Shown here in pieces: positions 46,736 through 64,000 of a DNA stretch of 64,000 bases. Under the pieces are notes generated by a model. That model worked only from the letters and a program-made list of their open reading frames with translations, ran no database searches and had not been told where the DNA came from. The stretch is from Homoserinibacter sp. GY 40078 (lineage in GTDB: Bacteria > Actinomycetota > Actinomycetes > Actinomycetales > Microbacteriaceae). The stretch spans positions 124,001 through 188,000 of the forward strand of contig NZ_VRTZ01000003.1 in NCBI RefSeq assembly GCF_008017545.1, read 5' to 3'. Within the stretch, counting starts at the first letter, position 1. Each line of letters starts with the position of its first letter. The translations under genes were made by a program, and so were the position numbers.

Positions 46736-48247
46736 GTGATCTCTGCACATCTCACCATCGACCCGCATTTCGTGGTCGGTCCCATCAACCGCCGACTGTT
46801 CGGCTCGTTTGTCGAGCACCTCGGGCGCTGCGTCTACGACGGCATCTATGAGCCGGGCCATCCGGATGCCGACGAGCACGGCTTCCGTCGCGATGTGATC
46901 GAGCTGGTGCGCGAGCTCGGGGTGTCGACCATCCGCTATCCGGGCGGCAACTTCGTCTCGGGTTATCGCTGGGAGGACGGCGTCGGCCCCCGCGACGAGC
47001 GGCCGCGCCGACTGGATCTCGCCTGGCATTCGACGGAGACCAACCAGGTGGGCCTCGATGAGTTCGCGCTCTGGCTCGACAAGGTCGGCAGCGAGCTCAT
47101 GTACGCCGTGAACCTCGGCACGCGGGGCGTGCAGGAGGCGCTCGACGTGCTCGAGTACGCCAACATCCGCTCGGGCACCGAGCTCTCGGATCAGCGGGTC
47201 GCCAACGGGGTCGAGGAGCCGTACGACATCCGGATGTGGTGCCTCGGCAACGAGATGGACGGCCCATGGCAGCTGGGGCACGGCACGCCGCGCGAGTACG
47301 GCCGCCTCGCCGTGAAGACGGCCCGCGCGATGCGGCAGGTCGATCCGTCGCTCGAACTCGTCGTGTGCGGCAGCTCGAGCGCCCAGATGCCGCTCTTCGG
47401 GGAGTGGGAGCGGGTCGTGCTCGAGGAGACCTACGACGAGGTCGACTACATCTCGTGCCACGCCTACTACGAGCCGGTGGGCGGCGACTACGGCAGCTTC
47501 CTGGCATCCGCGGTGAACATGGACCGCTTCATCGAGTCGGTCGTCGCTACAGCCGACCACGTGAAGGCCATCCGCGGCAGCGAGAAGACGATCGACATCT
47601 CCTTCGACGAATGGAACGTCTGGTACCACTCGCGCTACGCGGAGGTCGACCGGATCACCGACGTGAACGAGTGGCCCGTGGCCCCCCGGCTTCTCGAGGA
47701 CTCCTACTCGGTGGTCGACGCCGTGGTGTTCGGCAACCTGCTGATCTCGCTCATCCGGCACGCCGATCGCGTGACCGCAGCGAGCCTCGCCCAGCTCGTG
47801 AACGTGATCGCCCCGATCATGACCGAACCCGGCGGCCCGGCGTGGCGGCAGACGACGTTCTTCCCGTTCGCGCTCACCTCCCGCCTCGCGCGGGGCGTGA
47901 CGCTCGAACTCAAGCTCGACTGTCCCAGCTACACCACAGAGCGGCACGGCGAGGCGTCCGTCGTCGACGCGGTCGCGACCCATGACGACTCGACGGGCGC
48001 CACGGCGGTGTTCCTCGTGAACCGCAGCCTCGATGAGGAGGTCGAGCTCGTGATCGACACGAGCATCCTGGGCGACGTCTCGATCGGCAGTGCGCAGAGC
48101 CTCCACGACGACGACATGCACGCGGCCAACACCCTGGATGCGCCCGACCGCGTGCGGCTACGGCCGAACGACTCCGCACGCCTCGCCGACGGCGAGCTGC
48201 ACATCACGCTGCCGCCCGTCTCGTGGACGGCGGTGACTCTCGGATGA
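46736..48247 (+). CDS. GH51 alpha-N-arabinofuranosidase
   Basis: A 503-residue cytoplasmic enzyme that removes terminal L-arabinofuranose. GH51 landmarks are NRRLFGSFVEHLGRCVYDGIYEP, TIRYPGGNFVSGY, the acid/base Glu 173 in CLGNEMDGPWQ and the nucleophile Glu 292 in ISFDEWNVWY. A C-terminal beta domain follows. GTG at 46736 is preferred because GAGGA lies just upstream and homology starts there. No signal peptide, so it processes imported arabino-oligosaccharides, feeding araA/B/D. It overlaps the following GH5 remnant by 4 nt. Confidence 0.95.
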   Translation: MISAHLTIDPHFVVGPINRRLFGSFVEHLGRCVYDGIYEPGHPDADEHGFRRDVIELVRELGVSTIRYPGGNFVSGYRWEDGVGPRDERPRRLDLAWHSTETNQVGLDEFALWLDKVGSELMYAVNLGTRGVQEALDVLEYANIRSGTELSDQRVANGVEEPYDIRMWCLGNEMDGPWQLGHGTPREYGRLAVKTARAMRQVDPSLELVVCGSSSAQMPLFGEWERVVLEETYDEVDYISCHAYYEPVGGDYGSFLASAVNMDRFIESVVATADHVKAIRGSEKTIDISFDEWNVWYHSRYAEVDRITDVNEWPVAPRLLEDSYSVVDAVVFGNLLISLIRHADRVTAASLAQLVNVIAPIMTEPGGPAWRQTTFFPFALTSRLARGVTLELKLDCPSYTTERHGEASVVDAVATHDDSTGATAVFLVNRSLDEEVELVIDTSILGDVSIGSAQSLHDDDMHAANTLDAPDRVRLRPNDSARLADGELHITLPPVSWTAVTLG

Positions 48248-48994
48248 CGGATGCCCCAGGCATCCTGCGGGTCGACGGCGCGCGGATCGTCGGCGACGCG
48301 GGTCCCGTGGTGCTGCGCGGCTTCGGGCTCGGCGGCTGGATGAACATGGAGAACTTCATCACCGGGTACGCCGGAGCCGAGTCGCAGCAGCGCCGGGCGC
48401 TGCGGCGGGTGCTCGGCGAGGAGGGATACGAGCGGTTCTTCGCGCGCTTCCTCGAGGTGTTCTTCACCGACGAGGACGCCGCGTACCTCGCGAGCCTCGG
48501 TCTCAACTCGCTGCGTGTGCCGTTCAACTACCGCCACTTCGAAGACGACGACGCACCGATGCAGCTGAAGGAGGAGGGGTTCCGGCTGCTCGATCGGGTG
48601 GTCGACGCGTGCGCGCGGCACGGCATCCACACGATCCTCGATCTGCACGCTCTGCCCGGCGCCCAGAACCAGCACTGGCACAGCCGGGAGGCGATCGCCG
48701 AGCACTACCGGGGCAACCCGTGGGTGGCGCGCTACAACCCGATCAACGAGCCGGGGGCAGTACATCGACCGCGACGAGGTGGAGCGCATCTTCCTCGCAC
48801 GCACTGCGTACGTGCGCGACATCCTCGAGCCCATCGAGCGGCTGTTCGCCACGGAGTTCCCGGATTTCGCCCCCTACCCGTGGGGAGCACCGCGGTGGGT
48901 CACCGGTCTTCCCGGTGTGATGGTCGGGAAGGGCGGGGTCGCCCGGTCGGCATGCCGTACCGGGCGACCCTCGTCGGTGGGCGCGGGGAGGTAG
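48244..48994 (+). pseudogene. GH5-like glycoside hydrolase, internally deleted and frameshifted
   Basis: Codons 1-169 are a good N-terminal GH5/cellulase-type half: VLRGFGLGGWMNMENFI, SLRVPFNYRHF, LDLHALPGAQNQHWH, and NPWVARYNPINEP ending at the acid/base Glu (48748-48750). At about 48752-48757 the frame changes. A different frame then continues QYIDRDEVERIFLARTAYVRDILEPI and FPDFAPYPWG, recognisable as the family C-terminal region. The nucleophile half between is missing. So this is an internal deletion with frameshift and the protein is surely inactive. The start overlaps the GH51 stop, so it was once part of that operon. Confidence 0.75.
48936..48970. terminator. bidirectional terminator between GH5 remnant and BNR/LamG gene
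   Basis: Perfect 12-bp stem GGGTCGCCCGGT (48936-48947) and ACCGGGCGACCC (48959-48970), whose 11-nt loop includes the further palindrome CGGCATGCCG. It serves both convergent transcripts. Confidence 0.7.
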
Positions 48995-48998
48995 CGGC

Positions 48999-51071
48999 TC
49001 AGAGAGTCGAGAACCGCGCCACCTCCGCCGCGGTCAGCGCGCGGTCGAAGATCTCGACGTCGTCCACGGCGCCCGCCATCGGGTCGACGTTCGCGGCCGA
49101 GGGGTAGCCGACTCGGAGGGGCGAAGTGCCCGTCGCGATCGCGCCCGAGATCGGCGCGGTGCCGGTTCCGACGAGCGATCCGTCGACGTAGAGCCGCACG
49201 GTCGATCCGTCGTAGGTTCCGACGAGGTGATGCCACGTGCCGACCCCGAGGGAGCCGCCCTTCGCGGTCGTGCCTGCCGAGTACCAACCCGAACTCGCGG
49301 TCTTGACCGCGAACGTCACCACCCCGCTCGCGTTGACGGCGAGACGATACGACGCCTGAGCGCTCGTGCCCGAGTCCTTGCCTACCGGCACGCAGCTCTG
49401 CGCGGGCATTGCGTCGAGCCGCGTCCACACGGACAGGGTCAACTGCGCCATCCCTTCGAGGGTCGCGGAGTCGGGGATCTCGACGTAGTCGTCGACCCCG
49501 TCGAGCTGCACGGCCGTCCCGCGGACGCCTGCCACGCGGGTCGCGCCTCCGAGCAGGGCGCCGTCGAGTCCGGCGGGGGAAGAGGCCACGGCTGTCGTAC
49601 CGGTCGGCTCGTCGAAGCCCCACTCGCCGAGCGGAGGCGTGATCGGCGCCCCGGACCGCAGCTCGATGTCGAACACGTGCAGCGCCGACGGCGCCCCCGC
49701 CGACGGCTGCGCCTCCTGCAGGTAGACGGAGAGCACGCCGCTCGAGCGCCAGCGGTACCAGTCGACGAGCGGTTCGCCCCCGTAGGACCCGGGCAGCGTC
49801 GCGATCGCCTGCCAGTCGGAGTAGCCGCTCGACACCGTGCCTCGTGCGATCCGCAGCTCGGTGCCCGAGCGGTAGACCGCGTACGCGTCGCCCTCGGCAT
49901 CGACGACGATCTTCGGCCGGGAACCGGTGATGTCGAGCTCCGACACGTGCCAGACGCCCGAGGTGTCGCGCCAGTAGTGGTGGTAGACCCGCGCGGCGAG
50001 GGCGTCCGCCCCGGTCGCCGGAGTCGGCAGAGACGCCGGCATGTGCTGGGTGAGCACGTGGACGACGCCGTCACCGTCGACGTACGAGGACTCCTGGTTC
50101 AGCAGCCCCCGGTTCATGCCGATGGCCGTCACGCGTACCCCCGTCGTCGCGATCGAGATCGGGCTCGAACCCGTCGTTCCGGCGAGGGCACCCGAGCCGT
50201 CCCGCCAGGTGAGGCCGTCATCGTCGCTGTAGGCGTAGTTGAGGTCGTGGTTGGACCCGGAGTCCGCGGTCTCGCGCCACATCCAGGTGAGGTGGAGTCG
50301 GCCGTCATCGTCGTACTGCGGGTAGTCGAGGTAGGCGTTGCGGTTGCCGTCGCCGCCCGGGTAGGTGCCGGATTTCGCGATGAAGATGCCGCGCTTCGCC
50401 CACGTGTGGGTCGTCCCGTCGTACTGGTAGAGCAGGCTGTCGCCGTTGCCCGAACCGCTCTGGCGGCGGATGAAGATGAGCTTCCCCTCGGAGCTCGTGA
50501 TGAAGCGCGGGTACGTCACGCTCGACTCCGTCACGCCCGTGACCAGCTGACTGCGCACGCTGCTGAACAGCGATGTCGACCAGGGGTGGGAGGCGGGGTC
50601 GGTCGCCACACCCGCGACCGAGACGCGGTAGTGGAGCGCATCGACGTGGTGGTGGAACGCGAGGTGGATGGTGCCATCCACGGGGCTGATGCCGAGCACC
50701 GGATCGTCGTGTGTGTCGGTGCCCGTCACCTCGTAGTCGGAGAAGCATGCGCGCTCCCACGATCCGGATGGCAGCTCACGCCGTGCGACGCAGACCTGCC
50801 GGTCGGCGTCGTAGTAGGTGGCGTACTGATGATCGCCGAACGTCGCCAGGCCGTCCTGCTGGAACGAGACCCCGTTCGGGTACACCCCATACGTGCCCGA
50901 GGTGAAGGTCAACGCCTCGTCGTCGACGATCGAGTCCGAGATCAGATTGACGTGGGCCGCGTGCGCGGCGGGTGGCGCCGGCGGTGCCAGTGTGCATGCG
51001 AGGGCGACCGCAGCGGCGGCGACCGCAGCGACGGCGATGCGTCGTGGGTTCGAGAGGGTGGATGTGCGCAT
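48999..51071 (-). CDS. secreted BNR-repeat (BNR_4-like) beta-propeller protein with C-terminal LamG domain, putative polysaccharide lyase/hydrolase
   Basis: A 690-residue exported protein. The signal peptide ends about residue 38 (AAHAAH). Residues about 45-470 form a BNR_4-type propeller with LAFHHHVDALHYR (about 132-145) and NAYLDYPQYDDDGRLHLTWMWRET. These histidine/tyrosine/arginine-rich motifs recall ulvan lyases and other uronate-cleaving propeller families. A LamG/concanavalin-like domain follows (about 475-690; GTWHHLVGTYDGSTVRLYVDG), usually glycan-binding. A 300-codon upstream extension in the same frame is spurious. It is 32 bp after the WbsX gene, so same operon. Precise activity unproven. 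Confidence 0.75.
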   Translation of the reverse strand: MRTSTLSNPRRIAVAAVAAAAVALACTLAPPAPPAAHAAHVNLISDSIVDDEALTFTSGTYGVYPNGVSFQQDGLATFGDHQYATYYDADRQVCVARRELPSGSWERACFSDYEVTGTDTHDDPVLGISPVDGTIHLAFHHHVDALHYRVSVAGVATDPASHPWSTSLFSSVRSQLVTGVTESSVTYPRFITSSEGKLIFIRRQSGSGNGDSLLYQYDGTTHTWAKRGIFIAKSGTYPGGDGNRNAYLDYPQYDDDGRLHLTWMWRETADSGSNHDLNYAYSDDDGLTWRDGSGALAGTTGSSPISIATTGVRVTAIGMNRGLLNQESSYVDGDGVVHVLTQHMPASLPTPATGADALAARVYHHYWRDTSGVWHVSELDITGSRPKIVVDAEGDAYAVYRSGTELRIARGTVSSGYSDWQAIATLPGSYGGEPLVDWYRWRSSGVLSVYLQEAQPSAGAPSALHVFDIELRSGAPITPPLGEWGFDEPTGTTAVASSPAGLDGALLGGATRVAGVRGTAVQLDGVDDYVEIPDSATLEGMAQLTLSVWTRLDAMPAQSCVPVGKDSGTSAQASYRLAVNASGVVTFAVKTASSGWYSAGTTAKGGSLGVGTWHHLVGTYDGSTVRLYVDGSLVGTGTAPISGAIATGTSPLRVGYPSAANVDPMAGAVDDVEIFDRALTAAEVARFSTL

Positions 51072-51103: not shown

Positions 51104-52243
51104 TCAGGCGAGCTCGCGCCTGATCGCCTCGAGGTAGGCCATGCCGTGATGCGTGTCGGGCTCGAGGTAGCTGCCCTCGGTCCACTCGTTCCAGGCATTG
51201 ACGGTGATGATCCCGTGGCCGTTCTCGACGTCGTCCGCCCAGGCGCGCGCCTCGGCCAGCTGGGCGGCGAACGCCTCCGGGGTGGCGCCGGTGAGGATGC
51301 CGGTGAAGGGGTACCGGTCGAGGTCCTCGTAGACGTCGGACTGCACGGTGCGCGGGCTCGCATCCCAGCCGACGGTCACGTTCGGGAAGAACGGCACTGG
51401 CACGGTCGCCGCGAGCTCGCGCATCCGCGAGCGGGCGTCGTCGAGGTGGGCACTGTAGTCGGTGGCGGGTGTTCCGCGCAGCGGCGCGTGATGCAGCGAG
51501 ACGTAGGCGGTGGTCGAGTCGAAACCGAGCCGTTCGACGAGCTCGCCCGGGTCGGGCAGCGCGCGGTCGGTGACGAGGATCCCGGAGCCGACGAGCACGG
51601 CGTTGAGGTGCAGGTCGGTGCCGATCGCGCGCCGCGCGCGCTCCCGGAAGTCGGCGAGCGCGTCGGCCGTCGCATCCACGCCGCCGAGGCCCGCGATGAG
51701 GGTGGGGAGGTCGTAGAACGACACGTAGGGGCGCCCGTCCGGACGCCAGTACTCCGGGCGTCCGAGATAGGTCTCGATCATGTAATCGGTGGCATGGACG
51801 AACACCTCGGGCGAGACCGCCCCCTCCTCGAGCACGGTGGGGTTCGTGCCGCGTTTGACGGGGTGGATGTTGACCCAGTCGTGGTTCGCCCACATCAGCG
51901 CGAACTTCAGACGCTCGCGGTCGGGGGATGCGAGGTATCCCCGTTCGAGCGCCCCCTCGAGGAAGGGGGCGTCGCCGTACCAATACCAGTCGTAGATGAA
52001 TGCGGTGATCCCGTGGTCGGCTGCGGCGCGGATGCTGCGACCGGCGACCTGGGGGTCAGACTCGTCGCCGTACCCCCAGGCAGGTACCCGGGGCTGCTCG
52101 TGCCCGGGGAACCGTGGCTCGGCTCGCCGCACGAGTTCCCACTCCGTCCAGCCGTCGCCGTGCCAGTCGCGGTACCGCGGGTCGTGGTGGTACCCGGGGA
52201 AGTAGTACACGGCTGTCTGGTAGCGGGTTGACCTCGATGTCAT
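51104..52243 (-). CDS. WbsX family (GH99-like domain) protein 1
   Basis: A 379-residue protein without signal peptide. WbsX/GH99-like hallmarks are AVYYFPGYHHD, GWTEWELVRRAEPRFPGHEQP, TAFIYDWYWYGDAPFLEGAL and MWANHDWVNIHP, ending with NAWNEWTEGSYLEP (Glu 353 and 356, likely catalytic-type acids). The family is often annotated as O-antigen glycosyltransferase, but the fold is that of retaining hydrolases and here it heads a catabolic operon. Substrate unknown. A second copy lies at 62563. The start codon abuts the IclR-type operator at 52245-52270. Confidence 0.8.
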   Translation of the reverse strand: MTSRSTRYQTAVYYFPGYHHDPRYRDWHGDGWTEWELVRRAEPRFPGHEQPRVPAWGYGDESDPQVAGRSIRAAADHGITAFIYDWYWYGDAPFLEGALERGYLASPDRERLKFALMWANHDWVNIHPVKRGTNPTVLEEGAVSPEVFVHATDYMIETYLGRPEYWRPDGRPYVSFYDLPTLIAGLGGVDATADALADFRERARRAIGTDLHLNAVLVGSGILVTDRALPDPGELVERLGFDSTTAYVSLHHAPLRGTPATDYSAHLDDARSRMRELAATVPVPFFPNVTVGWDASPRTVQSDVYEDLDRYPFTGILTGATPEAFAAQLAEARAWADDVENGHGIITVNAWNEWTEGSYLEPDTHHGMAYLEAIRRELA

Positions 52244-52244
52244 A

Positions 52245-52270
52245 GTTCATATGTTAGAACGAGTTCATAA
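52245..52270. promoter_or_regulatory. putative IclR operator 1 (WbsX1 / dehydrogenase divergent promoter)
   Basis: AGAACGAGTTCA at 52256-52267, built on GAAC-NA-GTTC, is embedded in a wider run with GTTCATATGTTAGAAC (52245-52260) and GTTCATAA. The same core, AGAACCAGTTCA, occurs at 54151-54162 beside the IclR gene. It lies between the divergent WbsX1 and dehydrogenase genes. Confidence 0.7.
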
Positions 52271-52316
52271 GTGTGTGCTACGGTCCGATCGTGGCCGATG
52301 AAGGCCAGGAGGAACG

Positions 52317-53294
52317 TTGACGTCGATGCGCGAGGGTCTGGTCGACCAGGGCGACCCCGGAGGATCCCCCGGCAAGATCCTGGTGGCCGTGCCGGATGCG
52401 GCGCTCGCAGACGGCATTCGCGAGGCGGACCGCGGCCTGGCGGTCATCTGGGACGGCGTGGGTGAACCCGACGGGGACCTCGCCGACGTCGCGCTCTGGG
52501 TGCCCGCCAAGCGCGTGGCATCCGACGCCCAGCGCAAGGCCGCGCTCGGCCGTCTCCCACGTCTGCGCGCGGTGCAGCTGCTCTCGGCGGGTGCCGACGT
52601 GTGGATCGACATCATGCCGCCCGGCGTCGAGCTCTTCGATGGACGTGGCGTGCACGGCTCGTCGACCTCGGAATGGGCGATGGCCGCGATGCTCGCCTGG
52701 CTCCGCGAACTGCCCCGGTTCGTCCGGGCGCAGGACCGCGGCGAGTGGGATCGGCCCTTCGAGACCGACGAGCTCGCCGGCAAGCGGGTCATGGTGATCG
52801 GTGCGGGGGATGTGGGCGCCTCCCTCGCGCGCCGTCTCACCGCCTTCGATGCCCTCCCGGTGCTCGTCGCCCGCCGCGCGCGCGACGGCGTCGCGGCGAT
52901 CGAGCAGGTGCACGAGCTCTTGCCGGAGGTCGACGTCGTCGTGCTCGTCGTCCCGCTGACGGATGAGACCCGGGGGCTCGTCGACTCGGCCTTCCTCGCC
53001 CGGGTCCCCGACGGCGCCTTGCTCGTGAACGCATCCCGTGGGCCCGTCGTCGACACCGATGCCCTCGTGGGCGAGCTGCGCAGCGGGCGGATCTCGGCGG
53101 CGCTCGACGTGACCGATCCCGAACCGCTGCCGCCGGGGCATCCGTTGTGGTCGATGCCGAACGTCCTGATCACGCCCCATACGGCGGGCCTGGTGTCGGG
53201 CTTCTCGGCCCGGGCGCGTGCGCTCGTGCTCGATCAGCTGCGCCGCCTCGACGAGGGGCTGCCGATGCGCAACAGGGTCGCCGACGGCTACTGA
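52317..53294 (+). CDS. D-isomer-specific 2-hydroxyacid dehydrogenase
   Basis: A 325-residue NAD(P)-dependent dehydrogenase: Rossmann motif VIGAGDVGASLARRL, VLVVPLTDETRGLVD, catalytic Arg in NASRGPVVD, Glu region LDVTDPEPLP, and His in ITPHTAG. The TTG start is supported by AGGAGG at 52307-52312 (4-nt spacing); ATG 52326 is an alternative. Family members oxidise 2-hydroxyacids or reduce 2-ketoacids. In this locus it may handle a sugar-acid intermediate; no substrate can be assigned. It converges on the IclR gene. Confidence 0.88.
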   Translation: MTSMREGLVDQGDPGGSPGKILVAVPDAALADGIREADRGLAVIWDGVGEPDGDLADVALWVPAKRVASDAQRKAALGRLPRLRAVQLLSAGADVWIDIMPPGVELFDGRGVHGSSTSEWAMAAMLAWLRELPRFVRAQDRGEWDRPFETDELAGKRVMVIGAGDVGASLARRLTAFDALPVLVARRARDGVAAIEQVHELLPEVDVVVLVVPLTDETRGLVDSAFLARVPDGALLVNASRGPVVDTDALVGELRSGRISAALDVTDPEPLPPGHPLWSMPNVLITPHTAGLVSGFSARARALVLDQLRRLDEGLPMRNRVADGY

Positions 53295-53319: not shown

Positions 53320-54087
53320 TCAGGTGTCGAGCCGCCGCAGGAGTTCGTCCCGTGCGTCCTGGAGCAGTGGAACGACGAGCTGGGCGCTGTCGTCGCGCAG
53401 CCGGGGCACCGGTATCGCGACGCTCACCGCCATGAGGGGGATCGCCGTGTGGCTGAGTGCAACGGAGAAGCAGTGCACGCCGATGGTGTTCTCCTCGTCG
53501 TCCTCGGCGTAGCCGCGGTCGCGGGCCAGGTGGAGATCGCGATCGAGGGAGGCGCGGCTCGTGATGGTGTGCGAGGTGAGAGGTTCCAGTCGCGCGGGCA
53601 GATGCGCGTCGAGCTGGGTCTGGTCGAGCGTCGCGAGCATCGCCTTGCCGAGACTCGACGCATACGCCGGCAGCCGCCGACCCGGATGGAAGCGCACGCC
53701 GAGTGCGTGGTCGGAGTACTTCGACGACAGATAGAGAAGCTCGGTCCCGTCGAGCACCGCGAGGTGGGTGGTCTCATTGAGGGCGTCCCGCACGCTCGCA
53801 AGCACGTCGTCGGCGAGCTCGGTGAACTCGGTCTCGTCGAGACCACCGACCCCGAGCATTCGGACGCGGTAGCCGAGCTTGAGGTTGCCCGTGCTGCGGT
53901 CTACAGCCAGCCAGCCGCGCGCGGTCATCGTACTGACGAGGCTGTGAGCGCTCGACTTCGGCAGCTCCATCGCGTGCTGCAGGGCGGTGAAGCTCATCGG
54001 GCCGCGTTGGCCGATGACCTCGAGCACGCGCAACGCGCGGTCTGCGGACTTCACCGGCTGCGGGGCGGATGCCTCGACTCCTGCCAC
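53320..54087 (-). CDS. IclR family transcriptional regulator
   Basis: A 255-residue IclR regulator. The N-terminal winged helix reads SADRALRVLEVIGQRGPMSFTALQHAMELPKSSAHSLVSTM. The C-terminal effector domain has LYLSSKYSDHALGVR, LPAYASSLGKAMLA and GYAEDDEENTIGVHCFSV. It is divergent from the ABC transporter operon. The conserved AGAACNAGTTCA site lies in that promoter and in the WbsX1/dehydrogenase promoter. It is the probable local regulator; the inducer is likely a sugar acid (inference). Confidence 0.92.
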   Translation of the reverse strand: MAGVEASAPQPVKSADRALRVLEVIGQRGPMSFTALQHAMELPKSSAHSLVSTMTARGWLAVDRSTGNLKLGYRVRMLGVGGLDETEFTELADDVLASVRDALNETTHLAVLDGTELLYLSSKYSDHALGVRFHPGRRLPAYASSLGKAMLATLDQTQLDAHLPARLEPLTSHTITSRASLDRDLHLARDRGYAEDDEENTIGVHCFSVALSHTAIPLMAVSVAIPVPRLRDDSAQLVVPLLQDARDELLRRLDT

Positions 54088-54150
54088 GATCGCGGCTCCT
54101 TACTCGCTTGACGGACTGAGGTTAGCAGTCCTACTATCGGTACAGCATTC

Positions 54151-54162
54151 AGAACCAGTTCA
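54151..54162. promoter_or_regulatory. putative IclR operator 2 (iclR / ABC transporter promoter)
   Basis: AGAACCAGTTCA followed by CATATGA, about 12 bp upstream of the ABC operon's AAGGAG ribosome-binding site. Same core as operator 1. Confidence 0.7.
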
Positions 54163-54184
54163 CATATGAGGACGAAGGAGTCCG

Positions 54185-56097: not shown

Positions 56098-57432
56098 ATG
56101 AAACGAATCACAGCGCGGCGCGCCACAGCAACGATGCTTGCCGCCGCCGCCGCGATCGCGCTCGTCGGATGCTCCGACGGCGGGTCGGGGTCGGACGAGA
56201 AGCCCGAGAAGCTCGTCGTCTGGACCGGTCAGGCGAACGAACCCGGCTTCGGTGCCCAGCAGGAGATCGCCGAGAAGTTCGAGGCGGCGACGGGTATCGC
56301 GGTCGAGATCGTTCCGAAGCCCCCGGCCTTCGCGGGCGACAACACCTCGCTCGCGACTTCCGTGGGTGCCGGTGTGCCGCCCGACCTGTATGTGATGGAC
56401 CGCAACAGCCTCCCGGGGCAGGGTGCCATCGGTATGTTGACCGACCTGGGGCCGCTGCTCCAGGGCGAGGACGCCGACCTGCTCGACAACTACCTCCCGG
56501 GACCGGTGAAGACCTCGAGCTTCAACGGCCAGCACTACGGCCTCCCGCTCTTCGCCACCGCGCGCGGCCTCTACTTCAACAAGACGCTGCTGAAGGAGGT
56601 CGGGGTCGATCCGGCCGTCCTGGACCCGGCGAACGGCGCGCCCACGATCGAGCTCATCACCGAGATCGCAGAGAAGCTCGACCACCGCGACGCCTCGGGC
56701 GACTACGACCGCCTCGGTTTCGTGCCGTGGTACTCGCAGGCCAAGCACATGACGTGGAACGTCTCGCACGGCGCCCAGTTCTTCGACGAAGACACCTGCT
56801 CGATCCCCGAGGCGGGGGACGTGCAGGTGCAGACCTTCGAGTACCTGCAGGAGACCGCCGAGCGTCTCGGGTACCAGGACGTGCAGACCTTCATCGCGAC
56901 GTACGCGTCGACCCCGAACAGCTCGCCGTTCTTCACCGGCAACCTGGGGATGACGATCGACGGCAACTTCTTCATCGACGCCCTCGAGAAGTACGCACCC
57001 GACCTCGACTACGGGGTGACCTACATCCCTGTCGCCGAGGAGGGCGACCCCATCGGCACCTACATGGGCGGCTGGTCGGTGGTCATCCCGCGCGGGGTCC
57101 ACTCGGAGCACTGGTCCTGGGAGCTCGCGAAGTTCTTCGCCGGTGAGGAGGGGCAGCGCATCTTCGAGACGGCTACCCAGACGATCCCCACCTGGACCGA
57201 CCTGATCGACGACCCCGAGGTGACCGGCCGACAGGGTCTCTTCAGCTCGATGCTCGAGGACTACGGCATCGAGTTCCCGCCGCTGCCTGTGACGACGCCC
57301 TTCTATTCGGCGATGGATCAGGCCCAGCAGGCGGTGCTCCTCGGCGAGTCGACGCCCGAGGAGGCGCTCGCGAGCGTCGCCCAGCAGGTGAATACCCAGA
57401 TGCAGGGGTACTGCCCGTACACGATCGGGTGA
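56098..57432 (+). CDS. carbohydrate ABC transporter substrate-binding lipoprotein (CUT1)
   Basis: A 444-residue extracytoplasmic solute-binding protein with lipobox LVGC (Cys 25). The mature part starts EKLVVWTGQANEPGFGAQQEIAEKFEAATGI, typical of the family 1 binders, with FFTGNLGMTIDGNFFID later. It captures an oligosaccharide; the IclR site and gudD/kdgD downstream suggest a uronate-containing ligand. A strong hairpin immediately follows its stop, separating it from the catabolic genes. Confidence 0.9.
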   Translation: MKRITARRATATMLAAAAAIALVGCSDGGSGSDEKPEKLVVWTGQANEPGFGAQQEIAEKFEAATGIAVEIVPKPPAFAGDNTSLATSVGAGVPPDLYVMDRNSLPGQGAIGMLTDLGPLLQGEDADLLDNYLPGPVKTSSFNGQHYGLPLFATARGLYFNKTLLKEVGVDPAVLDPANGAPTIELITEIAEKLDHRDASGDYDRLGFVPWYSQAKHMTWNVSHGAQFFDEDTCSIPEAGDVQVQTFEYLQETAERLGYQDVQTFIATYASTPNSSPFFTGNLGMTIDGNFFIDALEKYAPDLDYGVTYIPVAEEGDPIGTYMGGWSVVIPRGVHSEHWSWELAKFFAGEEGQRIFETATQTIPTWTDLIDDPEVTGRQGLFSSMLEDYGIEFPPLPVTTPFYSAMDQAQQAVLLGESTPEEALASVAQQVNTQMQGYCPYTIG

Positions 57433-57437
57433 TCGAA

Positions 57438-57469
57438 CCGGCGGGGAGGGGGCCTGCCCTCCCCGCCGG
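57438..57469 (+). terminator. intra-operon hairpin after the binding-protein gene
   Basis: Perfect 13-bp stem CCGGCGGGGAGGG (57438-57450) and CCCTCCCCGCCGG (57457-57469) with a 6-nt loop, no T-tract. It may stabilise the binding-protein mRNA and reduce downstream transcription. Confidence 0.65.
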
Positions 57470-57509
57470 CTCAACCTCGCCCCTCCGCACACCGACCAGA
57501 AAGGGCCCC

Positions 57510-58742
57510 GTGCCTCCCACGCCTCATCCCTCACGACCCGCCCTCGCCGATGGCTGGGTCGACGTCGTGAAGGCTCCCTCGCATGACGACCTCGGAACGC
57601 CGCTCATCATCGACGACGTGACGCTCACGGAGCTGCCGTCAGGCGCGCTCCTGTGCGGATACACCTTCAACAGGGACTCCCGGGAGCGCTCATACCCGCG
57701 CGACGGTGTGAACCACGACTTCCAGTGGAGCAACCCGTTCCAGCTTCGGCTCGCTCGCAGCGACGACGACGGCGCCACCTGGCACGAGATCGCCGCGCTC
57801 GACCTCAACATGGGGTTCCCGTTCGTGTACGAGGGGCGGCTCTACCTGTTGGGCAACCGTCTCGGGCGCCGCGACGTGGTGATCTGCGCGTCGGATGACG
57901 AGGGGCGGACATGGACGGATCCGGTGACGCTCTTCGAGGGCGGCTACTGGAACACGCCCGCAGGCACCGTGATCGTCGACGGCGTGCTCTACCGCGGTAT
58001 GGGCACTCCCACTGATCTGTCGTGGGGCGGCGGATGGAACGCGATCTGCGTGATCGCCGGAGACCTCGCGAATCCGCTCGATCCGGCGTCGTGGCGGATG
58101 TCGAATCCCGTTGTCTACCCCGGAACGCCGAGCGAGCTGATCCACCGTGCACCGGGCGTCGACGTACCGGAGCCCGGAACCCTCCTGCCGGGCCACTGGC
58201 TCGAAGCGAACGTCGTCGAGCTCGCGGGTGCACTGCGGCTCATCGCGGTCACGCGCCAGCAGAACCTCGTGGGCGTGTGCTCGATCACCGATGCGGACGG
58301 CGAGCTGCGACTCGACTTCGACTGCCTGTATCCGGTGCCCGGCGGCCACGCCAAGATGTTCATCATCCGCGACCCCGAGACGGGACTCTTCTGGTCGCAG
58401 GCCGACATCGCTCCCGACCCGCTCGACCTCACCGGGTGGAACTCGGGCGCGCACGGCGACGGCTACACGGGCGAGCCGGAGCTCGACCGTCACATCCTCA
58501 CCGCCGTGTACAGCGTGGACGCCCTCAACTGGTTCCAGGCGGGTGCCGTCGTGATCGGCGAGCGCCGCGAGTACGGGTTCCAGTACGCGGCGCCGCTCAT
58601 CCGGGGCGACGACATGCTCTATGCGGTGCGCACGGGTGTCGGCGACGCCGCGAATCAGCACGACGCGAACCGCGTGACCCTGCATCGGGTGCGCGACTTC
58701 CGTCGGCTCGCACACGAGCTCGTCCCGGGAGGACTGCGATGA
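57510..58742 (+). CDS. sialidase-like (BNR/Asp-box) beta-propeller protein
   Basis: A 410-residue cytoplasmic propeller with Asp-box repeats (ARSDDDGATWHEI about residue 81; CASDDEGRTWTDP about 130). Other motifs are GYTFNRDSRERSYPRDGVNHDFQW and HAKMFIIRDPETGLFWSQAD. The GTG at 57510 is chosen since AAAGGG sits just upstream and the earlier in-frame region is the hairpin. Such sialidase-fold proteins without signal peptides in catabolic operons are usually exo-glycosidases or lyases of unknown specificity. Stop overlaps the kdgD start. Confidence 0.75.
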   Translation: MPPTPHPSRPALADGWVDVVKAPSHDDLGTPLIIDDVTLTELPSGALLCGYTFNRDSRERSYPRDGVNHDFQWSNPFQLRLARSDDDGATWHEIAALDLNMGFPFVYEGRLYLLGNRLGRRDVVICASDDEGRTWTDPVTLFEGGYWNTPAGTVIVDGVLYRGMGTPTDLSWGGGWNAICVIAGDLANPLDPASWRMSNPVVYPGTPSELIHRAPGVDVPEPGTLLPGHWLEANVVELAGALRLIAVTRQQNLVGVCSITDADGELRLDFDCLYPVPGGHAKMFIIRDPETGLFWSQADIAPDPLDLTGWNSGAHGDGYTGEPELDRHILTAVYSVDALNWFQAGAVVIGERREYGFQYAAPLIRGDDMLYAVRTGVGDAANQHDANRVTLHRVRDFRRLAHELVPGGLR

Positions 58743-59641
58743 TCCGGGTCGACGACGGCGTGCTGTTCTTCCCGGTGACCCCGTTCGACGGCGAGGGCGA
58801 GTTCGCCCCCGACGCGTTCCGTGCCCACCTGGCCGACGGTCTTCGCTTCGAGCCCGGTGGGGTCTTCGCCGCGTGCGGCACCGGGGAGTACTTCTCGCTC
58901 GACGAGGACGAGTACCGCTCCGTCGTTCGGATCGCCGTCGAGGAGGCCGCGGGGCGCGTGGACGTCGCGGCAGGTGCCGGCGGGCCCACCCGCCGCGCGA
59001 TCCGCGACGCACGGGCCGCGATCGAGGAGGGCGCGACGACGATCCTCGCGATGCCGCCGTACCTCGTCCGGGGAAGCCAGGCCGGTCTCGTCGACCACTT
59101 CACCCGCATCGCCGATGCTGTCGACGCGGACGTGATCGTGTACCACCGCGACAACGCCGTGCTCTCGCCGGAATCCGTGCGGCAGCTGGCGCGGCATCCG
59201 CGAGTCGTGGGCCTCAAGGACGGGCACGGCGACGTCGGGCTGCTGGAGCGCATCGTCGCCACGGTCGACGAGTCCGACTTCGTCTACTTCAACGGGATGC
59301 CGACCGCCGAGCTGTACGCGCGTGCGTTCCGCGGTGTGGGTGTGCGCGCGTACTCCTCGGCCGTATTCTGCTTCGCTCCGGAGATCGCGGTCGCGTTCCA
59401 TCGCGCGCTCGCTACGGGCGATGAGGAGACGATCGCGCTGCTGCTCCGCGACTTCTTCGTGCCGCTCGTCGAGATCCGCGACCGGGCACCGGGATACGCC
59501 GTCGCGCTCGTCAAGGCGGGTGTCGCGCTCCGGGGGATCGACGCGGGGGGCGTGCGTCCGCCCCTCCGCGACGCGGACCCCGACGATCTCGCGGACCTCT
59601 CGCGACTCGTTGATCGCGCCCGCGCTACGGCAGGGGTGTGA
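58739..59641 (+). CDS. kdgD: 5-dehydro-4-deoxyglucarate dehydratase
   Basis: A 300-residue DapA/NAL-family enzyme converting 5-keto-4-deoxy-D-glucarate to alpha-ketoglutarate semialdehyde plus CO2 and water. Sequence strongly resembles KdgD: start DGVLFFPVTPFDGEGEF, GTGEYFSLDEDEYRS, Schiff-base Lys 160 in VGLKDGHGDV, Tyr 135, and the late block DFFVPLVEIRDRAPGYAVALVKAG. It lies between the sialidase-like gene (4-nt overlap) and the semialdehyde dehydrogenase gene (1-nt gap). Confidence 0.93.
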   Translation: MIRVDDGVLFFPVTPFDGEGEFAPDAFRAHLADGLRFEPGGVFAACGTGEYFSLDEDEYRSVVRIAVEEAAGRVDVAAGAGGPTRRAIRDARAAIEEGATTILAMPPYLVRGSQAGLVDHFTRIADAVDADVIVYHRDNAVLSPESVRQLARHPRVVGLKDGHGDVGLLERIVATVDESDFVYFNGMPTAELYARAFRGVGVRAYSSAVFCFAPEIAVAFHRALATGDEETIALLLRDFFVPLVEIRDRAPGYAVALVKAGVALRGIDAGGVRPPLRDADPDDLADLSRLVDRARATAGV

Positions 59642-59642
59642 G

Positions 59643-61211
59643 GTGCTGACGGGGGAGTCGCTGATCGCGGGCGAGCGGGTCGCCGGCACCGGGCGGGTCG
59701 TGCACGCGTTCGCGCCGCGGACCGGCGCGCAGCTCGAGCCGGGCTTCCCCATGGTCGATCCGGGACAGGTCGATCGCGCCGCCCGATCCGCCCTCGAGGC
59801 ATTTGCGCAGCTGCGGTCGAGCACACCGGCTGATCGGGCGCGGCTTCTCGAGTCGATCGCGGACGCCATCGAAGCCCTCGGCGATGCGCTCATCGAGCGC
59901 GCCGACGCCGAGACGGCGCTCGGAGTCGAGCGTCTGCGAGGTGAACGTGCCCGCACGACGGGCCAACTGCGGTTCTTCGCACGGATGCTCCGCGACGGCT
60001 GGGGCACCGGGGCTCGCATCGAGCACGGTGATTCTGACCGGCGACCTGCGCCCCGCCCGGATCTGCGTTTGCGCATGGTGCCCGTTGGACCGGTTGCGGT
60101 GTTCGGCTCGAGCAACTTCCCGCTCGCGTTCTCGAACGCGGGCGGCGACACGGCCTCGGCGCTCGCCGCAGGCTGCCCGGTCATCGTCAAGGCCCACAAC
60201 GCCCACCTCGGGACGGCCGCGCTTGTCGCCGACGCCGTGGCGGATGCGGTGAGAGCCGTGGGGATGCCAGGAGGCGTCTACTCCTCCCTCGTCGGCGACG
60301 GCGCGGGCATCGGTCAATCGCTCGTCGCGCACCCCGCGATCGCGGCTGTCGGATTCACCGGGTCGCGTGCCGCAGGGCTCGCCCTCGTGGGTGTCGCGGC
60401 GTCGCGGCCGGCCCCCATCCCCGTCTACGCCGAGATGAGCAGCGTGAATCCGGTGATCGTGCTCCCGTCGGCTCTCGATGCCGAGCGGGCCGCCGGCTAC
60501 GTCAGCTCGCTGACGCTCGGCGCGGGTCAGTTCTGCACGAATCCCGGGCTGCTGTTCGTTCCGGTGGGAGCCGAGGGCGACCGTTTCGTCGGGCACGTCT
60601 CGGAGACCGTTCGTGCGACGAGCGGCGCGACCATGCTCTCCTCGGGTATCCGCACCGCCTTCGAGTCCGCCCGTGATGAGCTCGCAGCGCAGCCCGGCGT
60701 GACGGAGCTCGCCGAGGGCCTCGCAGGAACCGACGACGATGCTCCCGCGGCGCGTGTATTCGAGGCGGCTGCGGGAGAGCTCATCCGTCGTCCCCGACTG
60801 CAGCACGAGATGTTCGGGCCCGCCGGTCTCGTCGTCCGCTACGACGGCACGGACGAGCTCCGAGCGGCGATCGGCGCCCTCGAGGGGCAGCTCACGGCTA
60901 CCGTGCATGCCGAGGACGACGATCACGTGACTCTCGCCGAGCTGCTCCCCGACCTCGAGCGGATCGCGGGCCGGATCATCGTGAACGGCTGGCCCACCGG
61001 AGTCGAGGTCTCGAACGCGATGGTCCACGGCGGTCCGTGGCCCGCCACGTCCGCGCCGCATACGACATCCGTCGGATCGCTTGCGATCGCGCGCTTCCAG
61101 CGGCCCGTGTCGTACCAGAACGTGCCCGAGCGACTGCTGCCGCCCGAGCTGCGGGATGCGAACCCGCTGGCCCAGGAGCGCCGCGTCGACGGGCGGATGG
61201 AGCTGCCATGA
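59643..61211 (+). CDS. alpha-ketoglutarate semialdehyde dehydrogenase (class III)
   Basis: A 522-residue aldehyde dehydrogenase. Catalytic Glu 264 ([10 protein letters not shown]) and Cys 298 ([11 protein letters not shown]) are in place; NAD-binding [22 protein letters not shown]. This sequence type is the KGSADH group that oxidises alpha-ketoglutarate semialdehyde to 2-oxoglutarate, the last step of both glucarate and oxidative pentose pathways. GTG start one base after the kdgD stop. It overlaps gudD by 4 nt. Confidence 0.92.
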
Positions 61212-62527
61212 GCGCACCCCGGATCGAGTCGCTCGAGGTGGTGCCGGTCGCCGGTCACGACAGCATGCTGCTGAACCTGAGCGGCGCGCACGCCCCGTAC
61301 TTCACGCGCAACGTGCTCCTCGTGACCGACAGCGACGGCCGCGTGGGCCTCGGCGAAGCGCCCGGCGGGGCCGCGATCGCCGAGGTGTTGCGCGACTCTG
61401 CGCCGCTCCTCGTCGGCCACTCCCTCGCGCGGATGCAGGAGCTCCTGCGCACGGTCTCCACAACCTTCGGTGAGCTCGACGCCGCCGGCCGCGGTCTGCA
61501 GACCTTCGATCTGCGCACCACGATCCACGCCGTGACGGCGCTCGAATGCGCGCTGCTCGACCTCACCGCACGCTGGCAGGGCGTGCGCGTCGTCGACCTG
61601 CTCGGGCAAGGAGCGCTGCGCGAGAGCGTGCCGGTGCTCGGCTACCTGTTCTTCGTAGGAGATGGGACCGCGGGCGAGCTGCGGTACGAGGCCGGGTCGG
61701 GCGATGGCTGGTTCCGTCGTCGCCGTCAGCCCGCGCTCGACCCCGCGGGGGTGGTCGAGCTCGCCCACGCAGCGCGTGAGCAGTACGGCTTCCGCGACTT
61801 CAAGCTCAAGGGCGGAGTCTTCGCACCGAGCGTCGAAGCCGATGCGGTCGAGGCTCTCGCCGCCGAGTTCCCGGACGCGCGCATCACCCTCGATCCCAAC
61901 GGCTGCTGGTCGCTCGCGGAGGCGGTCGAGATCGGGCACCGACTGCGTCCGGTGCTCGCCTATGCGGAGGACCCCTGCGGTGCCGAGGGCCCATTCTCCG
62001 GCCGGGAGACCATGGCCGAGTTCCGCCGGGCCACAGGGCTTCCCACCGCCACCAACATGATCGCAACGGACTGGCGCGAGCTGGCCCATGCGATCCGCGC
62101 GCAGGCGATCGACATCCCGCTCGCCGACCCCCACTTCTGGACGATGTCCGGCTCGATCCGCGTGGCGGAGCTGTGCGCGGCGTTCGGGATGACGTGGGGT
62201 GTGCACTCCAACAACCACTTCGACATCTCGCTCGCGATGCTCGCCCACGTGGGTGCCGCCGCCCCGGGGCCGATCACCGCCCTCGACACGCATTGGATCT
62301 GGCAGGACGGCGAGCGGCTGACGGCCGCGCCCCCGACGATCCGGGCCGGCGCCCTCGCGGTACCCGACGGGCCGGGTCTCGGCGTCGAGATCGACAGGGA
62401 ACGGCTCGACGAGGCCCATCGCCTGCACGAGGAGCAGGTACTCGGCGGGCGCGACGACGCGCGAGCCATGCGCACGCTCGTGCCCGACTGGGTCTTCGAC
62501 CCCAAGCGCCCCGCGTACGTGCGATGA
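61208..62527 (+). CDS. gudD: glucarate dehydratase
   Basis: A 439-residue enolase-superfamily dehydratase closely matching E. coli GudD over its length ([34 protein letters not shown]). Mandelate-racemase-type residues align with a constant offset of -6 to the E. coli numbering: Lys 201, Asp 229, Glu 260, Asn 283, His 333 and Asp 360. Converts D-glucarate (and L-idarate) to 5-keto-4-deoxyglucarate, feeding kdgD upstream. Its stop overlaps an ATG of the following frame. Confidence 0.96.
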
Positions 62528-62562
62528 CCCGCACGCCGTCCGACGAAGGAGAGACGAGACCT

Positions 62563-63657
62563 GTGACCGAGCCGGAGATCGCTGCGATCTACTTCCCGAG
62601 TTGGCATGCCGACCGCCGACGCGACGCGTACCTCGGTGACGGGTTCACCGAATGGGAGCTCGTGCGCGCCGGCCGACCGCGGTTCCCCGAGCACCGGCAG
62701 CCCATCGTGCCCCTCGACGGTCACCTCGACGAGAGCGATCCGGCCGTCATGAGCGGGATCGTGCGGCGAGCCGCGGACGCAGGGGTCTCCGCATTCCTCT
62801 GGGACTGGTACTGGTACGACGAGGCGGACTTCCTGAACCGTCCGCTCGACGAGACATACCTCGCGTTGCCCGATCCCGCCGTGCAGTTCGCCCTCATGTG
62901 GGCCAACCACGACTGGAGAGATGTGTTCCCAGCACGCACCGAGGGTGAACCTGCCCTGTGGTGGCCCGGTGCCGTCGACGCGGAGCAGTTCGACCGGATG
63001 TGCGAGGTGATCGTTCACCGCTACCTCGTGGAGCCCTCCTACTGGAAAGTCGATGGTGCCGCCTGGTTCAGCGTGTTCAGCTACGAGACCCTCCTGGAGG
63101 GACTCGGTGGCGCAGAGGCCGCCGCCGCGGCGCTCCGCCGCTTCCGCGACATGGCACGCGCGGCGGGGGTCGGTGAGCTGCACCTGAACGTGCTGAACCA
63201 CTGGTTCGACGTCGACCCGGCGGAGCTCCGCGCGGTGGGTTTCGACAGCATCGGCAGCTACGGCTGGGGTGACGTGATGCCGCTCGACCGCGGACCGACG
63301 CTCGCCTACGGTCCCTGGGCCGAGGAGAACGAGGCGCGCTGGGAGGCGGAGGCTGCTCGGCAGTCGCTTCCGTTCGTCCCGACGGTCACCATGGGGTGGG
63401 ATTCGACGACCCGCGTGCACCAGGACGACCCCATGGTGGTGACGGAGTGGCCCCACCTGCCGGTCGTCGTCGACCCCGACCCGGATCGCTTCGAGCAGTC
63501 GGTGCGCCGGGCGCGCGAGCACGTGGAACGCCACCGCACCCCGCCGGTCGTCATCGTCAACGCCTGGAACGAATGGACCGAGGGCAGCTATCTGGAGCCC
63601 GATGAGCGATTCGGCGACGCATTCCCCCTCGCGCTCCGGCGAGGATCTGGACGGTGA
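62563..63657 (+). CDS. WbsX family (GH99-like domain) protein 2
   Basis: A 364-residue paralogue of the protein at 51104: AAIYFPSWHAD, GFTEWELVRAGRPRFPEHRQP, SAFLWDWYWYDEADFL, MWANHDWRDVFP and NAWNEWTEGSYLEPDE (Glu 337 and 340). The two proteins share the framework but differ in the middle and in ligand-facing regions, suggesting different substrates. GTG at 62563 is preferred since AAGGAG lies 11 nt upstream; ATG 62524 overlapping the gudD stop is an alternative. No signal peptide. The stop overlaps the next gene by 4 nt. Confidence 0.8.
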   Translation: MTEPEIAAIYFPSWHADRRRDAYLGDGFTEWELVRAGRPRFPEHRQPIVPLDGHLDESDPAVMSGIVRRAADAGVSAFLWDWYWYDEADFLNRPLDETYLALPDPAVQFALMWANHDWRDVFPARTEGEPALWWPGAVDAEQFDRMCEVIVHRYLVEPSYWKVDGAAWFSVFSYETLLEGLGGAEAAAAALRRFRDMARAAGVGELHLNVLNHWFDVDPAELRAVGFDSIGSYGWGDVMPLDRGPTLAYGPWAEENEARWEAEAARQSLPFVPTVTMGWDSTTRVHQDDPMVVTEWPHLPVVVDPDPDRFEQSVRRAREHVERHRTPPVVIVNAWNEWTEGSYLEPDERFGDAFPLALRRGSGR

Positions 63658-64000
63658 CCGTCCGCTACGCGGGCTCGGATCCGGTGATCGCGGCCTCGAT
63701 CGCGGGAGCCGCGCAGGTGCGTGCCGACGGCGACGCGCTCTCGATCGCGCGTCTGCCCGACGAGGTCTTCGGGCGGGCGCCGGATGCCGGACTCCGCCGC
63801 GCCGCGGAGCAGCTCTCGGGCGTCTCGCTCGTCATCCGCACGCGCGCGTCGCGGCTCCGGCTCGACGTGCACCTGACGCGCTGGCGCCGTGCCGTGGGCC
63901 CGTCGTACTTCCGCCCGGCGCCCTTCGCGGTCTGGGTGGACGGCGCCTGGGCAGGTCGGAACGAACTCGACGCGGGCGACGTGGTCTGGATCGACACCGA
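63654..64000 (+). CDS. SGNH/GDSL esterase-like protein, N-terminal part (cut by window edge)
   Basis: The first 115 codons of a gene continuing past the window. The visible segment includes RLPDEVFGRAPDAGLRRAAEQ, then LRLDVHLTRW and FAVWVDGAWAGRN. This resembles the N-terminal beta-sandwich of SsfX3-like SGNH esterases, often carbohydrate deacetylases. The catalytic part is outside the window. It is coupled to WbsX2 by a GTGA overlap. Identity is tentative. Confidence 0.5.
   Translation, partial: MTVRYAGSDPVIAASIAGAAQVRADGDALSIARLPDEVFGRAPDAGLRRAAEQLSGVSLVIRTRASRLRLDVHLTRWRRAVGPSYFRPAPFAVWVDGAWAGRNELDAGDVVWIDT

What the first reader, a model, noticed from the sequence alone, without database searches (positions are those of the whole stretch)
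46736..64000. Candidate undescribed glycan-utilisation locus for an arabinose/rhamnose/uronate polymer
Seen: GH51, a secreted BNR/LamG propeller, two WbsX proteins, a CUT1 importer, a sialidase-fold protein, kdgD, KGSADH, gudD and the start of an SGNH esterase, all with small gaps or overlaps. A GH78 rhamnosidase and araBDA lie elsewhere in the window. Family knowledge: gudD-kdgD-KGSADH degrades glucarate; BNR-type propellers include uronate-cleaving lyases. Inference: the organism breaks down an arabinogalactan-protein-like or ulvan-like glycan and oxidises its acid sugars to 2-oxoglutarate. I know of no characterised system with this composition.
Basis: partly seen in the sequence, partly recalled or inferred. 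Interest (0 to 1): 0.85.

Follow-up and report, generated by a model that had tools for sequence, protein, structure and literature searches.

The report
Two-lyase acidic-glycan utilisation locus
A bacterium carries one apparently co-regulated gene set that looks built to cut rhamnose-capped acidic sugar chains and oxidise the acid sugar; the enzyme type usually needed for the middle step was not found in its genome, and an odd sialidase-shaped protein sits where that step would be.

Summary
The gene content is real. The core is 48999-67179: two divergent gene pairs share a 16-bp operator-like site, found nowhere else in the genome at up to one mismatch, so probably one IclR regulon. GH51, a decayed GH5 and the arabinonate genes lack the site and are probably neighbours. 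The secreted BNR protein is PL42-like (L-Rha-alpha-1,4-GlcA lyase), with the catalytic residues of FoRham1 kept. Two secreted lyases should leave 4,5-unsaturated glucuronate, yet the genome has no GH88/GH105 match. In the operon, beside kdgD-ALDH-gudD (uronate to 2-oxoglutarate), lies a cytosolic sialidase-fold protein without the sialidase FRIP arginine. WbsX1/2 are GH99-like by fold. Best reading: uptake and oxidation of Rha/GlcA-containing acidic oligosaccharides (plant gum or bacterial exopolysaccharide). Ulvan, intact arabinogalactan and xanthan each lack an expected enzyme; the substrate stays open. A missing GH88 is also reported for actinobacterial xanthan regions; the sialidase-fold protein is a testable candidate for that step here.

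The parts
43638..44852 (-). 404-aa protein, no Pfam or NCBIfam match at E 0.001; fumarylacetoacetate-hydrolase-like by eye (recalled); neighbour, probably outside the core
44839..46551 (-). IlvD/EDD aldonate dehydratase (arabinonate-type); neighbour, probably outside the core
   Evidence: PF00920, PF24877; PRK06131 840 bits, cut-off 539; L-arabinonate dehydratase equivalog 766.7, under its cut-off 882
46640..48247 (+). GH51 alpha-L-arabinofuranosidase (ArfA type), no signal peptide by eye; neighbour without the shared site
48244..48886 (+). decayed GH5 gene (PF00150 matched over profile positions 25-134 of 272 only; recognisable parts lie in two frames; end approximate)
48999..51071 (-). secreted PL42-like L-Rha-alpha-1,4-GlcA lyase with C-terminal LamG domain
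51104..52243 (-). WbsX1, GH99-like putative glycosidase, no signal peptide by eye
52254..52269 (+). operator-like site 1, between WbsX1 and the hydroxyacid dehydrogenase
52317..53294 (+). D-2-hydroxyacid dehydrogenase family protein
53320..54087 (-). IclR-family regulator
54149..54164 (+). operator-like site 2, between iclR and permease 1
54185..55138 (+). CUT1-type ABC permease 1
55150..56058 (+). CUT1-type ABC permease 2
56098..57432 (+). ABC sugar-binding protein, lipoprotein-like by eye
57429..58742 (+). orphan sialidase-fold protein without signal peptide (by eye); FRIP arginine absent
58739..59641 (+). KdgD, 5-dehydro-4-deoxyglucarate dehydratase
   Evidence: PRK03620 404.8 bits, cut-off 278; TIGR03249 311.2, under its cut-off 373.95
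59643..61211 (+). aldehyde dehydrogenase, putative 2-oxoglutarate semialdehyde dehydrogenase (nearest solved chain 3v4c, NADP+ aldehyde dehydrogenase)
61208..62527 (+). GudD, glucarate dehydratase-like
   Evidence: TIGR03247 694.6 bits, under its cut-off 828.7
62524..63657 (+). WbsX2, GH99-like putative glycosidase, no signal peptide by eye
63654..64000 (+). SGNH/GDSL esterase, probably O-deacetylase (inference); the gene runs past the window end to window position 64781 (L004:654-1781) and is followed 13 bp later by the secreted PL8 lyase, which lies wholly beyond the window (64795-67179 in window numbering, L004:1795-4179)
   Evidence: PL8:

Best explanation
An IclR-controlled regulon for acidic oligosaccharides that carry L-rhamnose on glucuronic acid. 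Outside the cell, the PL42-like enzyme removes terminal rhamnose from Rha-alpha-1,4-GlcA ends and the PL8 enzyme splits a second 4-O-substituted glucuronate linkage, both by beta-elimination, leaving 4,5-unsaturated glucuronate ends. The CUT1 importer brings in the oligosaccharides. In the cytosol the SGNH esterase removes acyl groups, WbsX1 and WbsX2 (GH99-like) cut glycosidic bonds, and the sialidase-fold protein acts on the uronate end. The acid sugar is then oxidised through the glucarate branch (GudD, KdgD, aldehyde dehydrogenase) to 2-oxoglutarate. Shown here by sequence: gene content, lyase residues, the shared site, absence of a GH88/105 (PF07470) match. Read by eye: signal peptides. 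Inferred: that IclR binds the site, the roles of WbsX and of the sialidase-fold protein, the direction of flow, and the substrate (plant gum or bacterial exopolysaccharide).
For: PL42: FoRham1 is the best solved match (E about 1e-50); of 13 FoRham1 active-site or ligand-contact positions compared, 11 are identical, including base/acid His85, His105, Tyr150, neutraliser Arg166, Tyr202 and Arg220; the two changes are Y26F and P223A (residues from PMC8377490). The counterpart of BT3686 His48 (FoRham1 Tyr34) is Phe, against the hydrolase alternative. PL8: all three PL8 domains; 536 bits to a xanthan lyase against 332 to the best non-xanthan chain; catalytic residues kept (GL1 numbers recalled). 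Uronate oxidation: kdgD and gudD with strong family scores in one operon. Regulation: the 16-bp pattern occurs twice in 2.98 Mb at up to one mismatch, both at the two divergent gene pairs here; the reversed control pattern occurs once. WbsX: the fold search ranks a GH-like protein (5ngw), GH99 and GH71 on top; two WbsX relatives (47% and 48% identical to WbsX1) lie after ABC importer genes, one followed by an apiosidase-like protein.
Against: No uronate dehydrogenase was recognised to feed glucarate (30 of 36 PF01370 places examined), so entry into the GudD step is not shown. GudD is under its equivalog cut-off and the aldehyde dehydrogenase scores only 86 bits to the KGSADH model (cut-off 770). 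The gene set was not found elsewhere: the sialidase-fold protein is full length in 1 of 299 family genomes, its own, and the neighbourhoods read of WbsX, PL42 and PL8 relatives did not hold it. I cannot name with certainty one polymer that has both the PL42 and the PL8 linkage. The site pattern was derived from its own two copies. The sialidase-fold model is only partly confident (153 of 437 residues under pLDDT 50).
Confidence: 0.6

Rival explanations
1. A reduced xanthan-utilisation region of the Microbacterium XT11 / Paenarthrobacter 6C kind: PL8 removes side-chain mannose, the decayed GH5 was the endo-xanthanase, and the importer takes up the products.
For: PL8 is nearest to xanthan lyases; a hydroxyacid dehydrogenase and an ABC importer also sit in the XT11 and 6C regions, which likewise lack GH88 (PMC12772297, passages); GH5 endo-xanthanases exist (PMC10881899, passages); two GH38 genes are elsewhere in the genome.
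Against: No GH9 match in the genome and the GH5 is decayed; both GH38 lie on another contig; no locus protein scored as GH3; PL42, gudD/kdgD and WbsX are not in the published region lists seen. Another family genome (G093, L082) has PL8 beside GH38, as xanthan regions do, and its locus looks different.
Confidence: 0.12
2. Arabinogalactan-protein / gum arabic side-chain harvesting: Rha caps (PL42), Araf (GH51), GlcA (glucarate route), without attack on the galactan backbone.
For: PL42 was defined on gum arabic Rha-GlcA caps (PMC8377490, sections read); GH51, GH78 and the arabinose genes lie nearby.
Against: PL8 has no obvious place; GH51 lacks the shared site; only one GH43 in the genome, on another contig.
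Confidence: 0.25
3. The sialidase-fold protein is a hydrolase of 2-ulosonic acids (Kdo-like) and the locus feeds on a Kdo- or RG-II-like glycan.
For: Distant relatives on plasmids of Sinorhizobium (2 records) and Burkholderia (1 record; 26-28.5% identity, 72-73% of the query) lie beside or near kdsB in both regions read; Tyr and Glu at sialidase-like spacing are kept (GH33 positions recalled); a WbsX relative is followed by an apiosidase-like protein.
Against: The FRIP arginine that holds the ulosonic carboxylate is not there; in the one MAG locus scanned among the nearer relatives (38-41% identity) the genes within 10 kb include UxuA, amidohydrolase and enolase-family proteins; KdgD scores as 5-dehydro-4-deoxyglucarate dehydratase far above its sialate-lyase score.
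Confidence: 0.12
4. Ulvan-like algal polysaccharide.
For: The BNR_4 fold is shared with PL24/25 ulvan lyases (PMC8377490); a relative (34% identity) in the archaeon Halocatena lies by GH78, a sulfatase and an IclR gene.
Against: The ulvan lyase match is only about 1e-4 over a short stretch; no GH88/105 match in the genome; no locus protein scored as a sulfatase.
Confidence: 0.04

Closest known systems
PL42 L-rhamnose-alpha-1,4-D-glucuronate lyase (FoRham1, Fusarium oxysporum; PDB 7esk/7esl)
   Same: Best solved match over the propeller; 11 of 13 compared active-site positions identical
   Different: Carries a C-terminal LamG domain; bacterial; next to WbsX; activity untested
PL8 xanthan lyases (Bacillus GL1 1j0m, Paenibacillus 6f2p)
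   Same: Near full-length match, catalytic residues kept
   Different: Tyr315 and Arg612 of GL1 (numbers recalled) are Thr and Leu; by eye the Paenibacillus enzyme differs there too; the gene setting is not a xanthan region
Xanthan utilisation regions of Microbacterium XT11 and Paenarthrobacter ilicis 6C (PMC12772297, passages seen)
   Same: PL8, ABC importer, hydroxyacid dehydrogenase, no GH88
   Different: Those have GH9, GH38 and GH3; this has PL42, two WbsX, gudD/kdgD/ALDH and a sialidase-fold protein
D-glucarate to 2-oxoglutarate route (gudD-kdgD-KGSADH)
   Same: All three enzyme types adjacent
   Different: Part of a lyase/importer operon; uronate dehydrogenase not recognised
GH99 endo-alpha-mannosidases
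   Same: Best-ranked named family in the fold search; an E-x-x-E spaced as E333/E336 of the B. xylanisolvens enzyme (pairing not verified residue by residue)
   Different: About 15% identity, TM about 0.5-0.6, no significant sequence match; substrate unknown

Membership tests
PL42 | sequence match to the characterised lyase over the propeller | tested here: met
   E about 1e-50 over query residues 64-470
PL42 | base/acid His85, His105, neutraliser Arg166, Tyr150, Tyr202, Arg220 | tested here: met
PL42 | beta-elimination on Rha-GlcA | not testable with these tools
   needs enzyme assay
PL8 | three PL8 domains over cut-off and catalytic Asn/His/Tyr/Arg | tested here: met
   (residue numbers of GL1 recalled)
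PL8 xanthan lyase | determinants for pyruvylated mannose (Tyr315, Arg612; recalled) | tested here: inconclusive
   not kept, but by eye not kept in the xanthan lyase 6f2p either
GH33 sialidase | FRIP motif arginine | tested here: not met
   Arg of YRIP in 6mnj aligns with Gly of the profile
GH33 sialidase | curated family model over cut-off | tested here: not met
GH99 (WbsX1/2) | GH99-like fold | tested here: met
   WbsX2 model only (pTM 0.79); TM about 0.5-0.6
GH99 (WbsX1/2) | significant sequence similarity to GH99 | tested here: not met
   (best GH99 chain E 0.0067, short)
Xanthan utilisation region | GH9 endo-xanthanase | tested here: not met
   (control rings in 2 of 14)
Xanthan utilisation region | GH38 in the region | tested here: not met
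   two GH38 in the genome, other contig
Ulvan utilisation locus | GH88/GH105 unsaturated uronyl hydrolase | tested here: not met
   (control rings in 3 of 14)
Arabinogalactan degradation system | galactan-backbone enzymes in the locus | tested here: not met
   in the genome only GH43 was searched, not GH16, GH30, GH2 or GH35
Glucarate pathway | GudD, KdgD and KGSADH | tested here: inconclusive
   KdgD over a subfamily cut-off; GudD strong but under its equivalog cut-off; ALDH only a weak match to the KGSADH model

The most novel reading that the evidence does not exclude
The sialidase-fold protein (57429-58742) founds a new family of cytosolic uronate-end hydrolases that takes the place of GH88/GH105: it removes 4,5-unsaturated glucuronate made by the two secreted lyases, which is then oxidised to the KdgD substrate without a kduI/kduD route. 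With WbsX1/2 as GH99-like enzymes for alpha-manno-configured sugars (alpha-D-mannose or alpha-L-rhamnose), the locus would be a complete new route for a gum such as a glucuronomannan.
Probability: 0.18. Interest if true: 0.75.

Novelty: new variant of a known kind. Interest (0 to 1): 0.5.

Why it matters
Authors of an actinobacterial xanthan study say that no GH88 is present and that they cannot tell which enzyme removes the glucuronate (PMC12772297, passages seen); a review assigns this step in Microbacterium to a beta-glucosidase (PMC10881899, passages). This genome has two lyases that should create the same end group, again no GH88/105 match, and one orphan enzyme-like protein in the uronate operon, so the question becomes a test of one protein. 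It would also invite first assays of WbsX proteins, a family still named as glycosyltransferase in Pfam, and of a bacterial PL42-like enzyme with a LamG domain.

Tried and rejected
Ulvan: put low, on the distance to ulvan lyases and the absence of a GH88/105 match. Xanthan: kept as a rival but lowered by the absence of GH9. Y315/R612 as proof against xanthan: rejected, because the xanthan lyase 6f2p differs there too by eye. Sialidase: rejected on the FRIP arginine. Uronate dehydrogenase: none recognised; the best probe hit (L096, 31% over 162 aa) looks like another epimerase-type protein by eye. A shared site upstream of GH51 and the arabinonate genes was looked for and not found. Relatives of the PL42-like protein inside the family: 90 of 299 genomes matched, own included, mostly through the LamG part; in the list of places 5 genomes besides its own match in the propeller, and the neighbourhoods of 4 of these 5 were read without finding this gene set. 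PL8 neighbourhoods: 4 of the 8 other matching genomes read; one (L085) has a hydroxyacid dehydrogenase, 33% identical. The 8 include one marginal match (G033, E 9e-4). PPR-protein hits of WbsX in the PDB are summed short repeats and were set aside. The Streptomyces plasmid region with a PL42-like match has no annotation and was not pursued.


Full report
Observation. I take it for an actinobacterium, probably Microbacteriaceae (inference, no call names it). The window ends inside the SGNH gene. The next stretch of the contig shows that the operon goes on, 13 bp after SGNH, with a secreted 794-aa PL8 lyase (64795-67179 in window numbering); my rough gene caller puts the next plus-strand gene 1 kb further on, at 68223. 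Minus-strand proteins were handed to the tools without their start codon, so their residue numbers are one lower than in the full protein.

Extent. Two intergenic stretches, 52244-52316 and 54088-54184, share T(T/C)AGAAC(G/C)AGTTCA(T/C)A. In the window, the 14-bp core at up to 2 mismatches gives 3 matches, two of them exact, against 0.25 expected in shuffles. In the whole genome the 16-bp pattern at up to 1 mismatch occurs twice, both here; the reversed control pattern occurs once. The pattern was read off these two copies, so their own presence proves nothing; what counts is that no others exist and that they lie in both divergent intergenic stretches. An IclR gene lies between them. I therefore take the core as 48999-67179: PL42-LamG, WbsX1, hydroxyacid dehydrogenase, IclR, importer, sialidase-fold protein, KdgD, aldehyde dehydrogenase, GudD, WbsX2, SGNH, PL8. 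No such site was found before GH51 and the arabinonate dehydratase. The GH5 gene after GH51 is decayed.

The two lyases. The BNR_4+LamG protein is nearest to the PL42 enzyme FoRham1. Of PMC8377490 I saw the outline and abstract and sections 10, 12 and 13. I mapped 14 positions named there. One, Tyr34, is the counterpart of BT3686 His48 and not a FoRham1 active-site residue; here it is Phe. Of the other 13, 11 are identical (His85, His105, Tyr150, Arg166, Ser170, Tyr202, Arg220, Asn275, Gln276, Arg331, Glu381) and two differ (Y26F, P223A). The PL8 protein keeps the catalytic residues (numbering recalled) and is nearest to xanthan lyases. Both have N-terminal signal sequences by eye; WbsX1/2, the sialidase-fold protein, SGNH and GH51 do not.

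The missing step. A PL42 or PL8 cut leaves 4,5-unsaturated glucuronate. PF07470 (covers GH88 and GH105, recalled) has no match in the genome; the same search rings in 3 of 14 control genomes. The passages seen of PMC12772297 report the lack of GH88 in the xanthan regions of Paenarthrobacter ilicis 6C and Microbacterium XT11 and leave the enzyme open; a review (PMC10881899, passages) assigns the step in Microbacterium to a beta-glucosidase. In our operon the gene just before kdgD encodes an orphan propeller. Its model (pTM 0.70, mean pLDDT 63.8, 153 of 437 residues under 50) matches sialidases at 10-15% identity among the 50 rows shown, and an uncharacterised protein, 5hx0. Profile alignment puts a glycine at the FRIP arginine. 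Invariant in the 6 aligned sequences are, among others, Glu259, Lys309, Arg354, Tyr386 and Arg401.

Who has it. With the single protein 3 of 299 family genomes matched, only the own one over its full length. The 7-row profile matched 10 of 394 genomes of the class, own included; over full length only the own genome and G498, where two sulfatase-like genes (by eye), a KdgD-like protein (29%) and an ABC permease are near. Six MAG loci, four of Latescibacterota and two of Gemmatimonadetes by their record titles, carry it at 38-41%; in the one scanned with Pfam (L009) a molybdopterin oxidoreductase, an amidohydrolase, a UxuA-type and an enolase-family protein lie within 10 kb. Three plasmid records have distant relatives; the two regions read have kdsB beside or near them. 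WbsX2 relatives over 40% were found in 2 of 298 other family genomes, PL8 matches in 8 of 298, one of them marginal, and the 5 other same-genus genomes sampled had none of the four proteins searched. So this is an accessory locus without a conserved copy in what I searched.

WbsX. Pfam names the family a glycosyltransferase. The WbsX2 model (pTM 0.79, mean pLDDT 72.4) is nearest to a GH-like protein (5ngw), GH99 and GH71. Sequence matches to GH99 are short and weak. E350 and E353 of WbsX2 are invariant in the 4 sequences and spaced like E333/E336 named in GH99 entry titles. GH99 chemistry by a 1,2-anhydro sugar (recalled) suits alpha-manno-configured sugars, which include alpha-L-rhamnose; this is inference.

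Metabolism. KdgD is over its subfamily cut-off, GudD strong but under the equivalog cut-off, the ALDH nearest to an NADP+ aldehyde dehydrogenase, 3v4c. PF01370 gave 36 places; the 30 examined held no clear uronate dehydrogenase. How glucuronate, saturated or not, enters is thus open. The hydroxyacid dehydrogenase may belong to that step, since one is also listed in the XT11 and 6C regions and one lies beside one PL8 of the four neighbourhoods read here.

Substrate. Ulvan: against. Xanthan: no GH9 match, GH38 elsewhere. Arabinogalactan: one GH43, elsewhere. I favour Rha- and GlcA-bearing oligosaccharides from plant gum or bacterial exopolysaccharide and do not claim one polymer. Literature: ten keyword searches of the open-access library listed no paper that by title or abstract start describes this gene set. 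'WbsX' with 'glycoside hydrolase' gave 0 papers, and of 35 papers with the letters 'wbsx' the 30 listed are, by title and abstract start, not about an enzyme assay. Subscription journals are mostly absent from that library, so this is no proof of novelty.

Noticed in passing
window 5269-12536: ABC importer nearest to the YtfQ/YtfR galactofuranose type (below cut-offs) with a LacI-like gene (by eye) at its end, next to the LacI/GH78 pair at 13302-17075.
   Followed up: partly
window 48244-48886: Decayed GH5 gene squeezed between GH51 and the convergent PL42 gene.
   Followed up: partly
L137:9794-11053 and L138:7743-8942: Sialidase-family relatives beside or near CMP-Kdo synthetase genes on Sinorhizobium mexicanum and Burkholderia pyrrocinia plasmids.
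   Followed up: partly
L064:9469-12224: WbsX relative followed by an apiosidase-like (PF13204) protein after ABC importer genes.
   Followed up: partly
L135:8298-19412: PL42-like BNR-4 protein beside GH78, a sulfatase and an IclR regulator on a Halocatena marina plasmid.
   Followed up: no
L082:8758-18458: PL8 with GH38 and a probable GH3 (by eye) in an unnamed family member, resembling a xanthan region.
   Followed up: no
window 43638-46551: Aldonate dehydratase paired with a 404-aa protein without Pfam or NCBIfam match.
   Followed up: no
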